From IMG/VR virus record IMGVR_UViG_3300046790_000047, positions 1-23,245 of that record: a stretch of 23,245 bases of DNA; one strand, given 5' to 3'. The translations under genes were made by a program, and so were the position numbers. Shown piece after piece: positions 627 to 9,533 of the stretch (position 1 is its first letter; every line of letters starts with the position of its first letter). A model generated the notes under the pieces. The model was not told the origin of the DNA, did not search any database, and saw nothing but the letters and a program-made list of their open reading frames with translations. Source of the DNA: a virus.

Positions 627-1610
627 TTATGCAACCTCCGTCACTAGAGCGGCACCCACTGCCGAGGCCCATGCACCGGTAATGAGGCCGGTGTAGCCGT
701 ACGGCGTTTCATAGTAAGAGCCCGGTACCATGAGGCATGTGTAGCTCGAGCTCGAAGCAGCGCTGCCGAGCTTGAGATACAGCGGCGATGTTGAGTCGTT
801 CTGGATTGTCGATCCCCTGCGCAGTGCATTGCTCGCGAGCAGCGTAACGGGCGTGATGGCGGCGGCGACGCTGGCAACGGTTGCCGTAGCTGGTGCACCT
901 GGCGATGCTGGGAAATTCGAGACCGTGACCGAGCCGTCGATCGCCACTGCGCCGGACGGCGCGACCTTGACGTCGACGTACCCGCCGCCGCCCTGAGTCG
1001 TGCGGCCCGTGATCACCGATTTGACGATCGACGCGTCGGATTCGGGGTGAGTCACATCGGAGATGCGAATAGTCCCGGTGCGCACCACCGTGTAATGCAG
1101 GATGGTCTGTATGTGGAACGTAGTCTGTGCCGTGCCGCCGTTCGTGAACACGACGCGGAAATACGCCGCTCGCGGTCCGACCGTATACGAGCCCGGGAGG
1201 CTCGGTAGCAGCGTAAAGGCGAGCGTCTCACTCCAGAGAACGCCGTCTGTTGACCACTGCATTTTCAGCCCGTCAGTGGCTGACCCCACGTTAGCAAACG
1301 CGTGCACGCCGATCGCTGCGTAGTCTTGCACGAACACCGCGGCGCCCGTGAAGGTGCCGTTAGCAGCAAGCGGCGTGTCGGTGCTGTTGCCAGCATCTGC
1401 TACGGACGGCACAGAGATCCGCAACGGCACGCCGCCGTCTGAGATCTTCACCCGGCCATCGGCTTCCGTCGCGACAAATTGGGCGTGGTTGGTGCCGTCC
1501 ACACCCGCGATGAGCTCGGCCGCTTCGGTGCCGGTGAGCAACGCGCCGTCGGTGACCGCGGTCGTCGACATGCCGGGCGGTAGGTCTATCTGCTTGAGTT
1601 TGATAGTCAT
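627..1610 (-). CDS. Beta-rich virion surface protein, uncharacterised
   Basis: 327 aa, ATG start overlapping the previous stop. The first part reads IKLKQIDLPPGMSTTAVTDG and NHAQFVATEADGRVKISDGG. The middle has a jelly-roll-like pattern: IGVHAFANVGSATDGLKMQW, TDGVLWSETLAFTLLP and YFRVVFTNGGTAQTTFHIQT, reminiscent of structural phage proteins that measure an averaged difference between samples. The rest (GGGGYVDVKVAPSGAVAIDG, VTVSNFPASPG, LRRGSTIQNDSTSPLYLKLG) contains further short strands. I do not recognise a named domain. From position it belongs to the fibre or adsorption cassette. The TAA stop is one base before the next ATG. Confidence 0.6.
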   Translation of the reverse strand: MTIKLKQIDLPPGMSTTAVTDGALLTGTEAAELIAGVDGTNHAQFVATEADGRVKISDGGVPLRISVPSVADAGNSTDTPLAANGTFTGAAVFVQDYAAIGVHAFANVGSATDGLKMQWSTDGVLWSETLAFTLLPSLPGSYTVGPRAAYFRVVFTNGGTAQTTFHIQTILHYTVVRTGTIRISDVTHPESDASIVKSVITGRTTQGGGGYVDVKVAPSGAVAIDGSVTVSNFPASPGAPATATVASVAAAITPVTLLASNALRRGSTIQNDSTSPLYLKLGSAASSSSYTCLMVPGSYYETPYGYTGLITGAWASAVGAALVTEVA

Positions 1611-2080
1611 GGCGTGGCCAGTGTTAGGAATGCGACGACGTCGCCGGCGTCGAGGTTGAACGCGAGCCCGCTGCCTTGGTAAAGCAGGTCACCCGCGTCG
1701 AGGCTGGCGATCGGCTTGGCCGTTGCGCCGGCGTCGACCGAGAAATAGAAGTCGCTGGCGCGTGATGCATCGCCGAGCGTGTACGCAACGCCGTTGACGA
1801 ACACATGCAAATAGCCGTCCGCATTCGGCGTGACGGCCAAGGGTGTTGCGCACGCCAGCATGTGCGGAGCGGTGGTGATGGACGCTGGCATAGCTTTGTT
1901 GGACAAGGGTATCGCCACGCTGGCACCCGATCCTGGCTCACCTTGCGGCCCCTGCGGCCCCTGCGGCCCGACAGGACCTGCGGCTCCGTCCGCACCCGCG
2001 GGCCCGGTCGGACCTGCGGGCCCCGGCGATCCGGCAGGTGACACAATGACAGTCAGCTCGCAAAACTCATCTGTCGACAT
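1607..2080 (-). CDS. Collagen-like protein, second member
   Basis: 157 aa, ATG start behind AGGTGA. Its N-terminus (FCELTVIVSPAGSPGPAGP) parallels that of the preceding gene (CxVTV...AGSPGP). Gly-X-Y triplets extend to about residue 50, including GPQGPQGPQGEPG. The C-terminal 100 residues have LHVFVNGVAYTLGDA, SDFYFSVDAGATAKPIASLD and DLLYQGSGLAFNLDAGDVVA, a strand-rich pattern like small trimeric adhesion tips. Its stop overlaps the next ATG (ATGA). Likely a fibre or decoration component, receptor unknown. Confidence 0.65.
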   Translation of the reverse strand: MSTDEFCELTVIVSPAGSPGPAGPTGPAGADGAAGPVGPQGPQGPQGEPGSGASVAIPLSNKAMPASITTAPHMLACATPLAVTPNADGYLHVFVNGVAYTLGDASRASDFYFSVDAGATAKPIASLDAGDLLYQGSGLAFNLDAGDVVAFLTLATP

Positions 2081-2084
2081 GGCA

Positions 2085-2090
2085 TCACCT
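2085..2090 (-). promoter_or_regulatory. Ribosome-binding site of second collagen-like gene
   Basis: AGGTGA on the minus strand about four bases before the ATG at 2080, overlapping the stop region of the previous gene. The same AGGTGATGC context is found before the sheath gene. Confidence 0.55.
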
Positions 2091-2899
2091 CACGCCGGAA
2101 ACCAGCTGCCGTATGGATATTCGCGGATGTAATCGATCTCGACCCACGCAAACGTCGCGGCGACCGTGAGGATTTCGAAGCCGGCACGCGTCGGCGTTAG
2201 AGGTGCAAACCCACCACCGTCGACGCGCAGGATGCGCTGCGTGTGTGGATTGATCACCGCGCTACCCCACCGCGAATCAGAGGGGCGCCAATCCTGCACA
2301 AACACGTAAGCACCGTCGTCAACGCCCGGCACAACCGTGCTGAGCGTGGTCGGCGTCAGGTCGAGATACTTGTACGACCGGCAGCGGTTGCCCCACAAAT
2401 AGCCGTAGCTCAGCGCGACCGTCGTCGGGTCGTGCGCTCCAGCGACGTTTGTCAGCTGCATCTGAATCACTTGCGACGTGTTCATGCGCGGGTCGGTGAA
2501 GCGCGCAGCGATCTGCGTCTGCGGCGCTGACAGCGCTTTTGTTAGCCGCATGCCGCTCGTCGACTGGATTCGAATCACCCCATTGACGAGCGTCGAGTTG
2601 TATTCGGTCGGGCCCAGCACGGGCGCCGCCGTCGTGACCTCGCCCTTGCGCGTGAGCAGCTCGCCGGTGCCGTTGTGCAGAGCCGTCCATCCGCGATCGC
2701 CGAGCACCGGCGAGCCGGCGTCAAACTCGTCATTTAGTGCGGCAGCCACCAGCGGCGGCGTCAAGTAGGGCGCGAGCACGGTCGCTGCGCCGCCAGCTCC
2801 AGGAGGACCCGCGGGCCCGACCGGACCCGCGGGGCCGACGGGCCCGGGGCTGCCTGCGGGCTGCGCGGTGACGGTGACTGTGCATCTCTGGGTTGCCAT
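2090..2899 (-). CDS. Collagen-like protein with lectin-like C-terminal domain
   Basis: 269 aa, ATG start behind GAGGG. The N-terminus QRCTVTVTAQPAGSPGPVGP leads into Gly-X-Y triplets (about residues 16 to 35), followed by a linker and a roughly 210-residue domain. That domain has LNDEFDAGSPVLGDRGWTAL, VNGVIRIQSTSGMRL, TDPRMNTSQVIQMQLTN, LSYGYLWGNRCRSYKYLDL and a YVFVQDWRP segment, with alternating strands like a concanavalin-type jelly roll. It probably trimerises through the collagen segment and binds a surface sugar; this is inference. It shares the N-terminal module with the next gene. Confidence 0.65.
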   Translation of the reverse strand: MATQRCTVTVTAQPAGSPGPVGPAGPVGPAGPPGAGGAATVLAPYLTPPLVAAALNDEFDAGSPVLGDRGWTALHNGTGELLTRKGEVTTAAPVLGPTEYNSTLVNGVIRIQSTSGMRLTKALSAPQTQIAARFTDPRMNTSQVIQMQLTNVAGAHDPTTVALSYGYLWGNRCRSYKYLDLTPTTLSTVVPGVDDGAYVFVQDWRPSDSRWGSAVINPHTQRILRVDGGGFAPLTPTRAGFEILTVAATFAWVEIDYIREYPYGSWFPA

Positions 2900-2908
2900 G
2901 TTGAGCCC

Positions 2909-3280
2909 TCACGGTGTGAGTAACGCGAGGTCGCCGTGCGCGAATAGCAGCCGCTCCGGTGCGGTCGAGTGCGCGAGCCATACGTCCCAATGCCACGTCG
3001 CAGGCTTGCCCGTAGGCGCGAGCGTCGACGTGTCTGCGGGCAAGAGCGTGAGCAGTACGAAGGTGCCCTCGACAACGACCGCCCACCCGGGGATTTGCGG
3101 CACAGCGCTGTGCGTGGGCGAGAACGGCGCTGTCACCGTGTACGGCGCGAGGTCGAACGGCGTGCCGTCCGAATGCACAGCGCTCAGTCGCAGACCGACC
3201 GACGCCCCGATCGCGACGCGGATTTGCACGGCGGCCGGCACGAGATTGATTTGAGCCGGCAGGGCTCCAGCGCAGCTCAT
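2909..3280 (-). CDS. Small beta-rich structural protein
   Basis: 123 aa, ATG start overlapping the glycosyltransferase stop. Contains INLVPAAVQIRVAIGASVGL, a TPFDLAPYTVTAPFSP strand and the segment GTFVLLTLLPADTSTLAPTG followed by TWHWDVWLAHS and a final LLFAHGDLALLTP. The arrangement of a hydrophobic strand, an LPADT turn, a W-x-W-D-V-W strand and a closing hydrophobic strand resembles the N-terminal beta-sandwich of BppU-like upper baseplate proteins (my recognition; weak). It could be an adaptor that links the collagen-like proteins to the baseplate. Function uncertain. Confidence 0.55.
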   Translation of the reverse strand: MSCAGALPAQINLVPAAVQIRVAIGASVGLRLSAVHSDGTPFDLAPYTVTAPFSPTHSAVPQIPGWAVVVEGTFVLLTLLPADTSTLAPTGKPATWHWDVWLAHSTAPERLLFAHGDLALLTP

Positions 3281-4008
3281 AGCGGCACCTCGTCGTGGCT
3301 GGTGTTGTAGGGCGTAAGCAGGATGCGCGGGATGCGATAGGGGTGCACCGGTTGGTCGCCGACGGCGCGCAGGTCAGACCAGTCGAGCGTTGCGCCGCGA
3401 CCGTCTTCGCCGAGCCACACGCGCGCGCGTGCGCTCTCCGCCGCGAAGCGGTGCCCGAAGGTCGACTTGATGGTGCCGTCGCCGCCTAAGTGATCGCAGA
3501 TATTTGGGACCGGCACGAAGACGTCGAGCTCGTTGGCGAGCGTAAACGCTCGCAAGCGCTCGTCGTCCCATGTGCCCCACAGGTCGCCGAAGAGATGCTC
3601 GCGGTCGCACACCCAGTCGAGCGCTCGGTCGCCGAGCTCGCGCGGCAGCACGAGCAGTTGAACGAACTGCAGTCGCCGGGTGCTTGCCCATCGCAAGCCT
3701 TGCGCGTGCGCGATCTCGACCTGGTCGCGCGGCAGCCAGCCAGCGATCGGCGAGTGCGGCCGCGCAGCGACGAGCGTCTCGAGCGTCGCGCGTAGGTCAG
3801 AGCACACGGCGATGTCGTCGGCGAGGATCGCGATGTGCGTCGCGCGCGGTTGGGCTAGCGCGCACGCGACCCAAGTCGCTTTCCACGCCGGCCAGCAACC
3901 TCGCCGGTTGATGTCGACGTGCACGCGAACCTCGCCGCCGACGCGCTCGACGAGTCGCCGGCAATGCTCCGCGCGTTCCGGCACTGTCATGATGCCAAGC
4001 GCTAGCAT
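3277..4008 (-). CDS. Glycosyltransferase-like protein (GT-A type) in fibre cassette
   Basis: 243 aa from the ATG at 4008, which overlaps the fibre stop (ATGCTAG). The frame is open a little further upstream, but that part lies inside the fibre gene. Residues 1-12 (LGIMTVPER) look like the first strand of a GT-A nucleotide-sugar fold; VRVHVDINRRGCWPAWKATW and the ATHIAILADDIAVCSDL block follow, where D64-D65 would be the DxD-like metal and sugar-nucleotide site. A later CDHLGGDGTIKSTFGH motif (His at about 173 and 186) resembles the C-terminal metal/donor motif of phage GTs. Cytoplasmic, no signal peptide. It may decorate a virion fibre. Substrate unknown. Stop overlaps the next start as ATGA. 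Confidence 0.7.
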   Translation of the reverse strand: MLALGIMTVPERAEHCRRLVERVGGEVRVHVDINRRGCWPAWKATWVACALAQPRATHIAILADDIAVCSDLRATLETLVAARPHSPIAGWLPRDQVEIAHAQGLRWASTRRLQFVQLLVLPRELGDRALDWVCDREHLFGDLWGTWDDERLRAFTLANELDVFVPVPNICDHLGGDGTIKSTFGHRFAAESARARVWLGEDGRGATLDWSDLRAVGDQPVHPYRIPRILLTPYNTSHDEVPL

Positions 4009-7000
4009 TGGAACGCTATCTCGAGTCCGCTCTCGTGCGTCGACTGCGCGCCCCACCAGACGACCGCAACGTTAGAGGCCCAAATAATCCACGCGAGATA
4101 GTGCACGCCGATGGGCGACTGCAGGGAGTATTGACCGTTGGCCGTGACTGCGTCATTGACGCTGGTCGAAAGCACGCGCGTGCGAGTGCCGCTCGGCGTG
4201 CCGACGGTGTCGAAGCCGATGCCTGTTACGGCTGCGAAGGTCTTCGTCTGCACGGCGGCATAGGCTTGCGCACGGGTCCAGGTGCCCGGCACGCCCTGCA
4301 CGAATTCGAAGCGCGAGGACGAGCCATTCGCGCCGACCCAGGTGTTGGCCGTCGGGTGCGTGAATGTCTCCGGCGTCCAGCTGCGCGCGTATCTAAACGC
4401 TGCTGTGACCTGGTTGTCGATGTTCCAAAGGTCACACTTGGCCGGTGTCGTATCGTTGCCGACCGTCTGCATGTGATAGGTCGTCGCGCTGCGCGGGCTG
4501 CATGTACCGAGGTAGCGCGACGCGGGTGCGCCAGACTTGGTCAAAACGCCGTTGACGCGGGTTATTGCGGTCGCGCGTGCTGTCGGCAGTGTCCAGTTGA
4601 CGAACTCCACGGCGACGCCGGCGGCCGTTCCGTCGGTGGGTGCAGGTGCTGACAGTGAGATGAATACGTCGAACGGCGTGCCCGTCGTGCGGCCTGACAG
4701 CGTCTGTCCGAAACCGTTGACCGAGCACAAGCGCCAGCCTGAGACCGTAGTGTCGTAGAGCGCGATCCTGTCGCTCTTGACCGGGGCGAGGTAGATGATT
4801 GAAAAGGCGCCATCGGCGACCGGCGAGTCGTCAGCCGTCGGCGACAAGCGAAAGCCGTTTGTACTCGGGTCGACGTCAGGCGGCACCCACCATGCTTGAC
4901 TCGTGCTTTTGCCCGTCAGAACGGATCCGGCAACAGGCCCTGTGCCGGTGAAGTCGATTCGACCGCTGGCGCTTAACACCGACTCGGCCGCTAGCCCATA
5001 GGCCGTGTCGACTTTCCAATAGGGGCTGTCTGGGTTGTAGCTCGTGTAACTGCGGCCGCAGACCCATGTCGTCGCAGAGCCGGAGATAACCGAGTAACTG
5101 ATCGAGGTGCCCGGCGAGCCGCCAGAGGCACCGCTCGTCGCATAAGGCGAGTCTATTTTGCTCGGCGAGCTCGGTGTGATGGTGAGCGAGATGGTAGCGC
5201 CGGCGTTGACGCCGAACCGCACGCCGCGCAACACCTGCTCGGACCCAGGCGGCGATACGAGTGTGAGGCTAACAGTGGAGCCGAGCATGTCGAGCTCGTA
5301 GAGCCAGCCGGGATAAACCGTTGTCGGCGGCGTGGTGTCGCGCGGCCACAACTGCAGCTCGCCGGGAATCTCGATGAACAGGCCGCTGGTGGTCGAGCCG
5401 GGTCGAAATTCGCGATTGCAGTACGCATAGCCAGCCGAGCCAGTGCGCACGATCATTTGCGAGCCGCTGACCGTCGCGGTGTAGGCGCCGGAGTAGGCGA
5501 GGTCGAGCTGATAGGGCGTGCCGGCGGTGCCGGGTGCGATGACTTCGTATACGCCGCAGTTGGCCGCGGCTTCGAAGAGCACGACGACAAGGTCGCCGGC
5601 GACAACGGCGACGCCGTCGACGCTGAGGGCGCCGTTGGCCGTCGCGGTGAGACGCGGCCGGTTGGTCGAGATGGTGGTCGCCGTGTAGGCCGGCAGCGTG
5701 GTTGCAGTGGCGAGCCGCGCGTCGAAGTAGCTTCGAGCCCGCAGCGCGTCCAGCCGCGCTTTATCGGCGGCCGATTGGAAGCCGGCAGTGCTGGCCGTAG
5801 CGACCGCATGCAGCGTGCCGCCGCCGCGTGTGCCGTGCTGCGCATCGGTGGCAAGGGCGGCGTTTTGCTGCGCCCATATTTGCGGCGTAGTCCCTACGGT
5901 GATCGGACCCGTCGTGGTGAGCTGCCACCGCTGACCCGCATGGGTTCCCTCTGCCACATAGACAACGGACCCAGTCACCAGCTCGCCAGCGGAATCAGAT
6001 TCCGTCGCCCGCAACCAAGTTCCATCCGAGCCGGTGCCGACAACGGTTACGTGGTAGATGCCGTTTCGCCACTCGATCGAAGCCGATGCATCTTTGAATA
6101 AGATGCGGTCGCCGACTGCCAACGCTATGCCGTCGACGACGTTCGGCTGCATGCCCGGCACTTGGATATTTGGGATGTTCGTAACAGACGCCACGCGCAC
6201 CGCTGTCTTGAAGCTGGCGGATAGGCCATCAAGACGCGTTTTGTCGGCGGCCGATTGGAAGCCATCAGCTGCGCCGGTGGCAAGTCCCGGCATCGCGTGC
6301 ACGTGGTCGCTACGAACGAGCGTAACCGCAGCGCCCGGCGCATTCGCTGCACCCACCGTGAGCGCTACCGGCGTCGCCGTGGCGGGGATCGCGTGCACGT
6401 GGTCTGACAGCGCGAGCGTTGCAGCGCTGCCGGCAGCATTGGAGCCCGCGAGCGTAAGCGCAACGGGCGTGCCGCTCGAGACAAGGTGCGTGTGATCCTG
6501 GCGCGCAGCGGTCGTGCCGCCGCCGACGGCTGCGGCAGCGTTGCCGACTGCCGGGCTCGTGACAGTCGCGAGCGGCGTGTTAGTGGCGCCCGACGCGAGC
6601 GAGTCGAGCTTGATTTTGTCGACGCCCGTGAGAAAGCCAGACGCTCCGCCGGCAATGGCTGCTGCGTGCAACGTGCCGCCGCCGCGCGCGCCGTGCTGCG
6701 CGTCGGTCGCAATCACGCCGAGCTGCACGCTGTCGGCGGCGACCACAATCGAGCCGTCGGCGTGCGCAACGACGTCAAGCTGGTTGCCCGTCTTCGTCAG
6801 ACCGGCGCCGGCGATGATTTGGCCGGCGCCGGAAACCTGTGTGAACGCGAGGGGGGTCGTACCAAGCACGATCGGGTCGTTGGTGGTGAGGGCCCATCCG
6901 CTGTCTGAGTTGGCGGTGCCCTCGGTAACAAACACATACATGCCAGAGTTGACCTCTGCCGAGCTGTCAGCGTCGGTCGAGCGGGCCCAAGCGCCGGCAG

Positions 7001-9533
7001 CGGTCGTGTATATGCCGTTTGCACTGCCTGCGGTCTGCGCGGTAAGCAGCACGCGGTCGCCGGCCGATGTCGTGACGCCATCGATGGCGACGGCGCCAGT
7101 GAGCGCGGCGACGTTGGTGGTCGCAACGAGACGCACGGACGCCTTGGTATCGAGTCCTAGGGCGACGGCGTCCACATAGGCTTTTGTCGCGGCATCCTGT
7201 GCGGCGGTCGGGTCGGCGACGCTGGTTAGACGCTGAGCATTGAAGCCGACGTTGGAGCTCGCCGCAGCGAGCGCCGTCTGCACGCGCGCAAACGAGGTGA
7301 CCTGCGCGCCAGTCTCGACGCCGTCGAGCTTGAGCTTGTCGACGGCCGATGCGAACCCATCTGCCGCGGTCGTGACGAGCCCCGGCATGGCGTGCGTGTG
7401 ATCGCTGCGCGCGACCGTCGTCGCCGAGCCTTGCGCGTTCGCGCCGCCGATGGTGAGCGCGACGGGCGTGCCGACGCTCACGGTGTGCTTATGGTCGTGT
7501 CGCGCAGCGGTCGTGCCGACGCCGACCGCGGCCGCCGCATTGTCGACGGCGACCGGCGCCGTCCCAGTGAGCGCCGCGGCGCCGGTTGCCAAGCCGTCGA
7601 GCTTGAGCTTGTCGGCCGCCGATGCAAACCCATCTGCCGCGGTCGTGACGAGCCCCGGCATGGCGTGCGCATGGTCGCTGCGCGCGAGCGACGTCGCCGA
7701 GCCGGTGCTCTGCGCTCCGCCGACGGCAAGCGCGGACGGTGCGGCCGTCGACACACTGTGCACGTGGTCGCCCTTGGCCGCTGCCGTCTCGACGCCGACG
7801 GCGGCGGTCGTGACAGTGATTTGCGTCGGCGCGTTGGTGGTGAGTGCAGCGGCGCCCGATGCGATCGCGTCGAGCTTGGTTTTATCGAGTGCCGACTGGA
7901 ATCCAGCAACGCTCGGCGTCGCTGCGGCGTGCAGCGTGCCGTCGGTCTGCGCGCCGTGCGCATGCACGTGGTCGCTTCGAGCGGCCGTCGTGCCGACGCC
8001 GACCGAGCCCGTAAACGCAACGGCTGCCGGCGTCGAGCTCGAGAGCGCCGCGGCGCCGCTGGCGATGCCGTCGAGCTTGGTTTTATCGAGTGCCGATTGG
8101 AATCCAGCAACACTCGTTGTCGCAGCTGCGTGCAGCGTGCCGTCGGTCTGCGCGCCGTGCGCATGCACGTGGTCGCTTCGAGCGGCCGTCGTGCCGACGC
8201 CGACCGCGGCTGCCGTGCCGACGTTCGCCGGCGCCGAGCTCGAGAGCGCAGCGGCGCCGCTGGCGATGCCGTCGAGCTTGGTTTTATCGAGTGCCGATTG
8301 GAACCCGGCAACGCTCGGCGTCGCAGCGGCATGCTGCGGGCCGCCGCCACGCGTCCCGTGCTGCGCATCGGTCGCGAGCGTGCCGACCTGCACGGCGTCT
8401 GCAGACACGACTATCGAGCCGTCAGCGTGCGCGACTACGTCGAGCGAGTTAACGGTCTTCGTAAGCCCGGCGCCGGCGATTAGCTGCGCGGAGCCAGTAA
8501 ACCGCGTGAACGTAAGCGCCGACGTGCCGAGCAAGATCGGCGCATCGGTCGAGAGTATCCACCCGCTGTCCGCGAAGGCGGTGCCGGCGGTGATGAATAT
8601 CACCATGCCCGGCAGGAGCTCTTCGCTTGAGTCTGCGTCGCTGCTGCGCAGCCACGCGCCGGCGTCGTTGGCGATGTAGATGCCGTTGTCGACTGGCGAC
8701 GCTTGCGCCGTGAGCAGCACGCGGTCGCCGTTCACGGTGGCGACCGAGTCGACTACTTGCGTATTCGACGCAGTGATCGGAATCGTTGCAACGAGTCGGC
8801 ACGGCGTGCGTGTGCCGGCGCGGTTGACGGCCGCGATGACGCTCGAGAGCGGCACGGCGTCGCCTGGTAGCAGTGGGACGCCGACGTTATGGATGATGTG
8901 CCCGGCGGCATTCTGGTCGCCGGTAAAGGGTATCGTCCCGTCGGCGCGAAGCAGGTTGTCGCTAAGGGAGGGAGCGAGCTTCTCTTCGGTGATGCTGCCG
9001 TCGGGTATTACGCCGCCGCCGCCGCCGCCGACGCCGCCTTCGATGGCTTCGACCATCTGTCGGTGAAAGTCGACGAGAGGGCGGTTGGTAGAGCCCTCAT
9101 TCATCTCCGTCAACTCGACCGACGGCACGGTCGGCACGAGCGTCGCGTTCGGGTCGTATCTCTCGGCGAGCCCGGGGTAGTCGATGTGGTAGCCCGGCGA
9201 GCGAATCGAGATGCGCCGCGTGACAGATGACACCACCTGGCCGCTCGCGGTGGCCGTGACGCGCACACGGAACGGACCCCAACACCCGATATCAAACTCG
9301 AGCGTCCACGTCTCCGGCGCGAGCTGCGTGAGTAGGGGGTTACTGTTGGGCGGCTCGTCGAGCAGCACGACGTCGACGAGCGCACCGGTCGGGATGTTGC
9401 CGACCGTGATCGTCACGGTGTGCGCGCGCGTCGCGGCGACAGCTCCGGTGCTCTTGATGTCGGTGCGGCCGCGGTCGACGCTGCCGGCCGGGATGCCTGC
9501 GTCTACTTGGTCGAACGTGAGTGTGATTGCCAT
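4002..9533 (-). CDS. Long tail fibre with D-H-x-H repeats
   Basis: 1843 aa, ATG start two bases after the wedge stop. Residues 1 to about 120 look like a beta-sandwich attachment domain. A glycine run at about 166 to 174 leads to IPDGSITEEKLAPSLSDNLL and FTGDQNAAGHIIHNVG, both typical of phage fibres. Three copies of a roughly 130-160 aa domain (about 244-400, 798-958, 1111-1243) carry GDRVLLTAQ / NGIY / DADSS motifs. Nine D-H-x-H motifs occur at about 454, 521, 589, 620, 680, 711, 1013, 1044 and 1076; in T4 gp37 such H-x-H motifs bind iron in a trimer. Residues about 1250 to 1843 are non-repetitive and probably contain the receptor-binding tip. The end overlaps the next gene by seven bases. 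Confidence 0.85.
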   Translation of the reverse strand: MAITLTFDQVDAGIPAGSVDRGRTDIKSTGAVAATRAHTVTITVGNIPTGALVDVVLLDEPPNSNPLLTQLAPETWTLEFDIGCWGPFRVRVTATASGQVVSSVTRRISIRSPGYHIDYPGLAERYDPNATLVPTVPSVELTEMNEGSTNRPLVDFHRQMVEAIEGGVGGGGGGVIPDGSITEEKLAPSLSDNLLRADGTIPFTGDQNAAGHIIHNVGVPLLPGDAVPLSSVIAAVNRAGTRTPCRLVATIPITASNTQVVDSVATVNGDRVLLTAQASPVDNGIYIANDAGAWLRSSDADSSEELLPGMVIFITAGTAFADSGWILSTDAPILLGTSALTFTRFTGSAQLIAGAGLTKTVNSLDVVAHADGSIVVSADAVQVGTLATDAQHGTRGGGPQHAAATPSVAGFQSALDKTKLDGIASGAAALSSSAPANVGTAAAVGVGTTAARSDHVHAHGAQTDGTLHAAATTSVAGFQSALDKTKLDGIASGAAALSSSTPAAVAFTGSVGVGTTAARSDHVHAHGAQTDGTLHAAATPSVAGFQSALDKTKLDAIASGAAALTTNAPTQITVTTAAVGVETAAAKGDHVHSVSTAAPSALAVGGAQSTGSATSLARSDHAHAMPGLVTTAADGFASAADKLKLDGLATGAAALTGTAPVAVDNAAAAVGVGTTAARHDHKHTVSVGTPVALTIGGANAQGSATTVARSDHTHAMPGLVTTAADGFASAVDKLKLDGVETGAQVTSFARVQTALAAASSNVGFNAQRLTSVADPTAAQDAATKAYVDAVALGLDTKASVRLVATTNVAALTGAVAIDGVTTSAGDRVLLTAQTAGSANGIYTTAAGAWARSTDADSSAEVNSGMYVFVTEGTANSDSGWALTTNDPIVLGTTPLAFTQVSGAGQIIAGAGLTKTGNQLDVVAHADGSIVVAADSVQLGVIATDAQHGARGGGTLHAAAIAGGASGFLTGVDKIKLDSLASGATNTPLATVTSPAVGNAAAAVGGGTTAARQDHTHLVSSGTPVALTLAGSNAAGSAATLALSDHVHAIPATATPVALTVGAANAPGAAVTLVRSDHVHAMPGLATGAADGFQSAADKTRLDGLSASFKTAVRVASVTNIPNIQVPGMQPNVVDGIALAVGDRILFKDASASIEWRNGIYHVTVVGTGSDGTWLRATESDSAGELVTGSVVYVAEGTHAGQRWQLTTTGPITVGTTPQIWAQQNAALATDAQHGTRGGGTLHAVATASTAGFQSAADKARLDALRARSYFDARLATATTLPAYTATTISTNRPRLTATANGALSVDGVAVVAGDLVVVLFEAAANCGVYEVIAPGTAGTPYQLDLAYSGAYTATVSGSQMIVRTGSAGYAYCNREFRPGSTTSGLFIEIPGELQLWPRDTTPPTTVYPGWLYELDMLGSTVSLTLVSPPGSEQVLRGVRFGVNAGATISLTITPSSPSKIDSPYATSGASGGSPGTSISYSVISGSATTWVCGRSYTSYNPDSPYWKVDTAYGLAAESVLSASGRIDFTGTGPVAGSVLTGKSTSQAWWVPPDVDPSTNGFRLSPTADDSPVADGAFSIIYLAPVKSDRIALYDTTVSGWRLCSVNGFGQTLSGRTTGTPFDVFISLSAPAPTDGTAAGVAVEFVNWTLPTARATAITRVNGVLTKSGAPASRYLGTCSPRSATTYHMQTVGNDTTPAKCDLWNIDNQVTAAFRYARSWTPETFTHPTANTWVGANGSSSRFEFVQGVPGTWTRAQAYAAVQTKTFAAVTGIGFDTVGTPSGTRTRVLSTSVNDAVTANGQYSLQSPIGVHYLAWIIWASNVAVVWWGAQSTHESGLEIAFQC
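7862..8335. repeat. Tandem 201-bp repeat within the fibre gene (third copy partial)
   Basis: Three copies of CGAGCTTGGTTTTATCGAGT begin at 7871, 8072 and 8273, exactly 201 bp apart, encoding a 67-residue unit that includes FQSALDKTKLDGIASGAAAL and AARSDHVHAHG. The first two copies are nearly identical over about 140 bases; the third is only partly conserved. Similar but more diverged blocks lie at about 7321-7404 and 7588-7680. Confidence 0.8.

What the first reader, a model, noticed from the sequence alone, without database searches (positions are those of the whole stretch)
3277..4008. Glycosyltransferase-like gene inside the tail-fibre and collagen-like cassette
A probable GT-A glycosyltransferase (ADDIA at residues 63-67, DHLGGD near 172) overlaps the end of the long fibre gene and is followed by a small beta protein and two collagen-like proteins. 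An enzyme co-translated with structural fibre genes suggests that virion fibres or collagen-like tails are glycosylated. Seen: gene order, overlaps and motifs. Known: GT-A enzymes use an acidic DxD-like site. Inferred: the substrate is a virion protein, possibly a Gly-X-Y segment.
Basis: partly seen in the sequence, partly recalled or inferred. Interest (0 to 1): 0.6.

Follow-up and report, generated by a model that had tools for sequence, protein, structure and literature searches.

The report
Sugar-adding enzyme paired with tail fibre
This phage carries a sugar-transferring enzyme from a family known to decorate phage particles with sugar, and across related and unrelated phages it always occurs with one particular domain of the long tail fibre, which suggests that the fibre is what it decorates.

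Summary
The gene is real, and its coordinates, overlaps and motifs are as described. It encodes a GT-A-fold glycosyltransferase under purifying selection (dN/dS 0.13-0.36). It is a divergent member of PHROG 854, the family of Che8 gp110, which published work names as essential for capsid glycosylation in a mycobacteriophage. Of the three proposed kinds of substrate, the collagen-like proteins are disfavoured: their Gly-X-Y tracts contain no lysine, and six of the eight related records that carry the enzyme have no collagen match. The fibre is favoured. A ~285-residue fibre segment (residues ~1265-1550, window 4884-5741, minus strand) occurs in all seven enzyme-bearing records whose sequence reaches it. 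It is missing, together with the enzyme, from the one close relative with a complete fibre and no enzyme (L053). The fibre tip and base vary independently of the enzyme. In one phage (L005), the distal fibre and the enzyme are the only parts detectably shared with the window. The best reading is a fibre-domain plus glycosyltransferase module, in which the enzyme glycosylates the distal shaft of the tail fibre. No chemistry could be tested, and the sugar, acceptor residue and host are unknown. This is a new variant of a known kind (phage-encoded virion glycosyltransferase).

The parts
3277..4008 (-). Glycosyltransferase gene (243 aa), PHROG 854-like, GT-A fold; D64/D65 (3814-3819), D149 (3562-3564) and H173 (3490-3492) are the family-invariant acidic and His positions
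4002..9533 (-). Long tail fibre gene (1843 aa); stop overlaps the GT start by 7 nt
4884..5741 (-). Fibre segment (residues ~1265-1550) found in every GT-bearing fibre whose sequence reaches it and absent from the GT-less relative; proposed acceptor region. Scanned core 5094-5744
4002..4883 (-). Fibre tip (residues ~1551-1843); replaced in L004 and L005, which still carry the GT
2909..3280 (-). Small ORF (123 aa), start overlaps the GT stop (ATGA); L003 and GT-less L053 each have a small protein with an 'MSC-G' start at this place; function unknown
2090..2899 (-). Collagen-like protein 1 (8 Gly-X-Y triplets plus a C-terminal domain shared with the L004 fibre tip); not conserved with the GT
1607..2080 (-). 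Collagen-like protein 2 (12 Gly-X-Y triplets); not conserved with the GT

Best explanation
The gene encodes an active GT-A glycosyltransferase made in step with the long tail fibre by overlapping start and stop codons. It transfers a sugar from a host nucleotide-sugar donor onto the distal shaft segment of the fibre (residues ~1265-1550) before the tail is assembled, so that the mature fibre carries glycans just behind its receptor-binding tip. Enzyme and acceptor segment travel together as a module, while tips are exchanged freely. Shown: gene, family, fold class, invariant active-site positions, purifying selection, gene overlap, and co-occurrence with the fibre segment across different phage backbones. 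Inferred: that it is catalytically active, that the fibre segment is the acceptor, timing before assembly, and function (stability, protection of the fibre, or adhesion). Unknown: donor sugar, acceptor residue, host.
For: Family and fold: PHROG 854 'glucosyltransferase' E 1.4e-6 over residues 2-178; hhalign to ten PHROG 854 proteins, probability 97.8%, E 7.6e-13; AlphaFold2 mean pLDDT 74.7 with residues 1-170 mostly 72-97; best PDB fold matches POMGNT1 (E 1e-7), GnT-I and mimivirus R655. Active site: D64, D65, D149 and H173 invariant in 15 proteins, relatives as low as 15% identical. Precedent: Che8 gp110 is in PHROG 854 (E 1e-99) and is described as essential for capsid glycosylation (PMC12363180). 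In GMA2, Dylan and Mareelih the PHROG 854 gene sits among head and tail genes. Fibre as substrate: separate scans of 2.9 million viral contigs with the GT and with the fibre segment gave nearly the same few contigs. The segment is in seven of seven GT records whose sequence reaches it; L053 (baseplate J 87%, sheath 88%, fibre base 87%) lacks both. Tips of L004 and L005 are unrelated to the window tip, yet both keep segment and GT. L005 shares only GT and distal fibre with the window. The next L005 gene is an integrase.
Against: No chemistry or mass data. Only one GT-less close relative has a complete fibre, and the seven records reduce to two or three independent backbones, so co-occurrence could partly be simple inheritance of adjacent genes. 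The first acidic position of the family E-D-D motif is Ala63 in the whole clade, and the family His in 'NHxxxW' is replaced, which leaves altered or weak catalysis possible. Residues 181-243 are poorly modelled and global TM-scores are low (0.33-0.48). The experimentally known PHROG 854 substrates are capsid (and tail tube), not fibre. Marine phages with glycosyltransferases in fibre regions have been read as host-surface modifiers (PMC7029224).
Confidence: 0.6

Rival explanations
1. The enzyme glycosylates another virion protein (major capsid or tail tube), as its mycobacteriophage relatives do, and lies next to the fibre only by chance.
For: PHROG 854 members with published data act on capsid and tail tube (PMC12363180 and PMC12619734); in other phages the gene lies near head or tail genes.
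Against: L005 carries the enzyme with no detectable homologue of the window's capsid, tube or sheath, but with the same fibre segment; L053 has a 90% identical capsid and 88% identical tube and no enzyme.
Confidence: 0.12
2. The enzyme modifies the host surface (LPS or another envelope glycan) to block superinfection or re-adsorption.
For: Glycosyltransferases in the tail-fibre region of pelagimyophages were interpreted this way (PMC7029224); the prophage wall-teichoic-acid enzyme TarP is among the fold matches; PF01755, an LPS biosynthesis family, matches several PHROG 854 relatives.
Against: The gene is translationally coupled to a late structural gene; a receptor-modifying enzyme should track the receptor-binding tip, but tips change while the enzyme stays with an internal segment; no second sugar gene was recognised beside it in the window.
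Confidence: 0.17
3. The enzyme glycosylates the Gly-X-Y tracts of the two downstream collagen-like proteins, as collagen galactosyltransferases do.
For: Gene order in the window, L001 and L002; relatives match GT25 (PF01755), the family of human collagen galactosyltransferase ColGalT1 (own knowledge), which is among the weaker fold matches.
Against: No collagen match in six of the eight related GT records (some are fragments); the tracts have no lysine, so no hydroxylysine acceptor, and only one Thr and three Ser in total.
Confidence: 0.04
4. The protein is a glycosyltransferase-fold fibre assembly chaperone that has lost catalysis.
For: Its place directly after the fibre is typical of fibre chaperones (own knowledge); Ala63 and the changed 'NH' motif depart from the family.
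Against: Both Asp of the metal motif, D149 and H173 are invariant in the full-length clade members; chaperones usually track the fibre C-terminus (own knowledge), which here changes freely.
Confidence: 0.07

Closest known systems
PHROG 854 phage glycosyltransferases (Che8 gp110, Dylan gp35, GMA2 gp23)
   Same: Same family profile and invariant residues (R12, L19, D64, D65, L92, D149, H173); genes within or near the virion modules of several phages
   Different: 15-22% identity, Ala in place of the first acidic residue, a ~60-residue C-terminal extension, alone rather than in a multi-enzyme cluster, tied to a tail fibre instead of head and tube genes
GT25 family (PF01755; LPS glycosyltransferases, collagen galactosyltransferase ColGalT1, mimivirus R655)
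   Same: Several PHROG 854 relatives match PF01755 (best 1.2e-7); R655 is the best sequence match and a top fold match in the PDB
   Different: The window protein itself does not match PF01755; no Lys in the neighbouring collagen-like tracts
GT13 enzymes POMGNT1 and GnT-I
   Same: Best fold matches of the model (E 1e-7 to 6e-5)
   Different: Low global TM-score (0.42-0.47); no sequence match
Tail fibre assembly chaperones and small genes directly downstream of fibres
   Same: Position and overlap with the fibre stop
   Different: This is an enzyme fold with conserved active-site residues and it does not follow the fibre tip

Membership tests
GT-A glycosyltransferase | GT-A (Rossmann-like) fold | tested here: met
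   Model with alternating strands and helices, mean pLDDT 74.7; top PDB matches are glycosyltransferases
GT-A glycosyltransferase | Acidic metal/nucleotide motif (DxD or EDD) | tested here: inconclusive
   D64 and D65 invariant, but the first position is Ala63 where relatives mostly have Glu
GT-A glycosyltransferase | Catalytic acidic residue and C-terminal His | tested here: met
   D149 and H173 invariant in 15 proteins; their catalytic and metal-binding roles are assigned by analogy, not tested
GT-A glycosyltransferase | Sugar transfer activity | not testable with these tools
   Needs purified enzyme
PHROG 854 | Significant match to the family profile | tested here: met
   E 1.4e-6, profile 3-177 of 211; hhalign E 7.6e-13
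GT25 (PF01755) | Match to the Pfam profile | tested here: not met
   No match for the window protein at E <= 1; 8 of 15 alignment members match
Virion-glycosylating phage enzyme | Glycan on a virion protein that depends on the enzyme | not testable with these tools
   Needs mass spectrometry
Virion-glycosylating phage enzyme | Gene linked to virion structural genes | tested here: met
   Overlaps the fibre gene by 7 nt; adjacent to a fibre end in all related records
Collagen glycosyltransferase | Collagen-like partner with Lys (or many Thr/Ser) in Gly-X-Y | tested here: not met
   No Lys, one Thr, three Ser in the two tracts; partner missing from six of eight related GT records

The most novel reading that the evidence does not exclude
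A mobile two-part module, a fibre shaft segment plus its dedicated glycosyltransferase, moves between unrelated phages and puts a sugar on the tail fibre itself, so that the adsorption organelle is a glycoprotein whose glycan is independent of the exchangeable receptor-binding tip.
Probability: 0.4. Interest if true: 0.7.

Novelty: new variant of a known kind. Interest (0 to 1): 0.5.

Why it matters
Phage virion glycosylation has been described for capsid and tail tube of mycobacteriophages; glycosylation of a tail fibre did not appear in the literature I could search. If true, it would add a post-translational layer to host recognition or fibre stability, and give a simple two-component system (a ~285-residue acceptor plus a 243-residue enzyme) that could be tested in a laboratory bacterium. 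It also gives a rule for reading glycosyltransferase genes beside phage fibres, which have been taken to act on the host surface.

Tried and rejected
Single-sequence searches gave nothing in Pfam, the PDB, the phage collection or the plasmid collection. GT8 was absent. Two genome-contig scans (GT profile, major capsid) found no relative, so no host could be named. The first AlphaFold2 model (6 close homologues) was poor, pLDDT 58; adding PHROG 854 relatives raised it to 74.7. Fold hits of the poor model were used only as a lead. The 2023 paper on mycobacteriophage virion glycosylation is not held; its results are cited through papers that quote it. Collagen substrate considered and rejected. 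The fibre N-terminus and the tip as the enzyme's partner were considered and rejected because both vary independently of the enzyme. I did not find a test to separate acceptor recognition from plain linkage beyond tip exchange and the L005 and L053 comparisons.

Full report
What is there. The window is a 23,245-base virus record from a contractile-tail phage: sheath-like protein, baseplate J, a hub-like protein and major capsid are recognisable, all on the minus strand. The gene at 3277-4008 encodes 243 residues. Its ATG overlaps the stop of the 1843-residue fibre gene by seven bases and its stop overlaps the next start by four. The gene is under purifying selection: pairwise dN/dS is 0.13-0.36 among six homologues.

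What kind of protein. Pfam and the PDB give no sequence match, but PHROG 854 'glucosyltransferase' matches at E 1.4e-6 over residues 2-178. A profile of six window-type proteins against ten PHROG 854 proteins gives hhalign probability 97.8%, E 7.6e-13. Among 15 proteins only R12, L19, D64, D65, L92, D149 and H173 are invariant. This pattern fits a GT-A metal motif, a catalytic acid/base and a C-terminal His ligand; the roles are assigned by analogy. The family motif is mostly E-D-D, and in this clade the first residue is Ala. The AlphaFold2 model from 13 sequences has mean pLDDT 74.7, good to about residue 170 and poor after 180. Its best PDB matches are POMGNT1, GnT-I and mimivirus R655, with GalNAc-T2 and ColGalT1 further down. 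Eight of the 15 aligned proteins match Pfam GT25, though the window protein does not.

Precedent. Che8 gp110 belongs to PHROG 854 and is described as one of two glycosyltransferases essential for viral capsid glycosylation, the other being Corndog gp38 (PMC12363180). Dylan, a Corndogvirus, has a PHROG 854-like gene 47% identical to Che8 gp110 among portal, protease and capsid genes. Glycans were reported at the C-termini of capsid and tail tube subunits (PMC12619734). In GMA2 and Mareelih the related gene lies between head and tail genes.

Which virion protein? Scans of IMG/VR with this enzyme found eight contigs, and in all the gene sits at the end of a long fibre gene. Collagen-like proteins are detected only in the two records nearest the window, and their Gly-X-Y tracts have no lysine and one threonine. 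So the collagen idea is not supported.

The fibre comparison is more informative. Fibre residues ~1265-1550 are found in all seven enzyme-bearing records whose sequence reaches that part (L001, L002, L003, L004, L005, L007, L016; L007 from the middle of the segment on, because its contig begins there). The eighth, L006, starts after it. The fibre base is missing in L005; the tip is unrelated in L004 and L005 and diverges in L003 and L007. The close relative L053 (baseplate J 87%, sheath 88%, capsid 90% identical) has a complete fibre with the same base and a recognisable first part of the tip, but lacks this segment, and has no enzyme: its fibre is followed directly by a small 'MSC-G' protein like the gene that follows the enzyme in L003. 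An independent scan with the segment (core 5094-5744) returned eight contigs: the seven above and one, L168, that ends inside the segment. A further segment-bearing contig, L047, ends inside the fibre. L005 has no detectable homologue of any other window protein; only the enzyme (67%) and distal fibre (48%) are shared, and its next gene is an integrase. The same seems to hold for L006 and L007, but their tail genes may lie off the contig.

Interpretation. Segment and enzyme stay together while the base and tip on either side change, and they cross between unrelated phages. I take this as evidence that the segment is the acceptor, or contains it, and that the enzyme is made in step with the fibre to modify it. 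It is correlative, with few independent cases. The segment has many conserved Ser/Thr and two conserved Cys; I do not choose among them.

Rivals. A capsid or tube substrate is weakened by L005 and L053. Host-surface modification, the reading given to glycosyltransferases in pelagimyophage fibre regions (PMC7029224), remains possible but should track the tip. An inactive chaperone is less likely given the invariant residues, though Ala63 needs checking.

Limits. No chemistry was possible. Host unknown. Contigs are fragments, and pattern-based scans miss distant relatives. Only openly licensed papers were searched.

Noticed in passing
window 2090-2899 (residues 57-267); L004 fibre residues 1811-2032; L003:8726-9829; L047 fibre end: The C-terminal domain of collagen-like protein 1 reappears as the fibre tip of L004 and L047 and behind a different N-terminal domain in L003, so one tip domain seems to be mounted on three kinds of stalk.
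   Followed up: partly
window 4002-9533: The fibre gene is built of repeated segments (SDHVHA-type repeats and a domain repeated about three times); L002, nearly identical elsewhere, has a fibre of 1604 instead of 1843 residues, so repeat number changes quickly.
   Followed up: no
L003:11269-12003, L053:19553-20269, L005:8818-10218: ParA-like ATPase genes (read from sequence) and, in L005, an integrase (Pfam) lie just past the tail module, which hints at a temperate or plasmid-like life.
   Followed up: no
window 627-1610: A 327-residue protein with no Pfam or PHROG match, found only in the nearest relatives L001 and L002.
   Followed up: no
L036:3481-4902 (phage mEp390): A PHROG 854-like enzyme of an E. 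coli phage lies between two HNH endonuclease genes near the genome end, unlike the virion-module position elsewhere.
   Followed up: no
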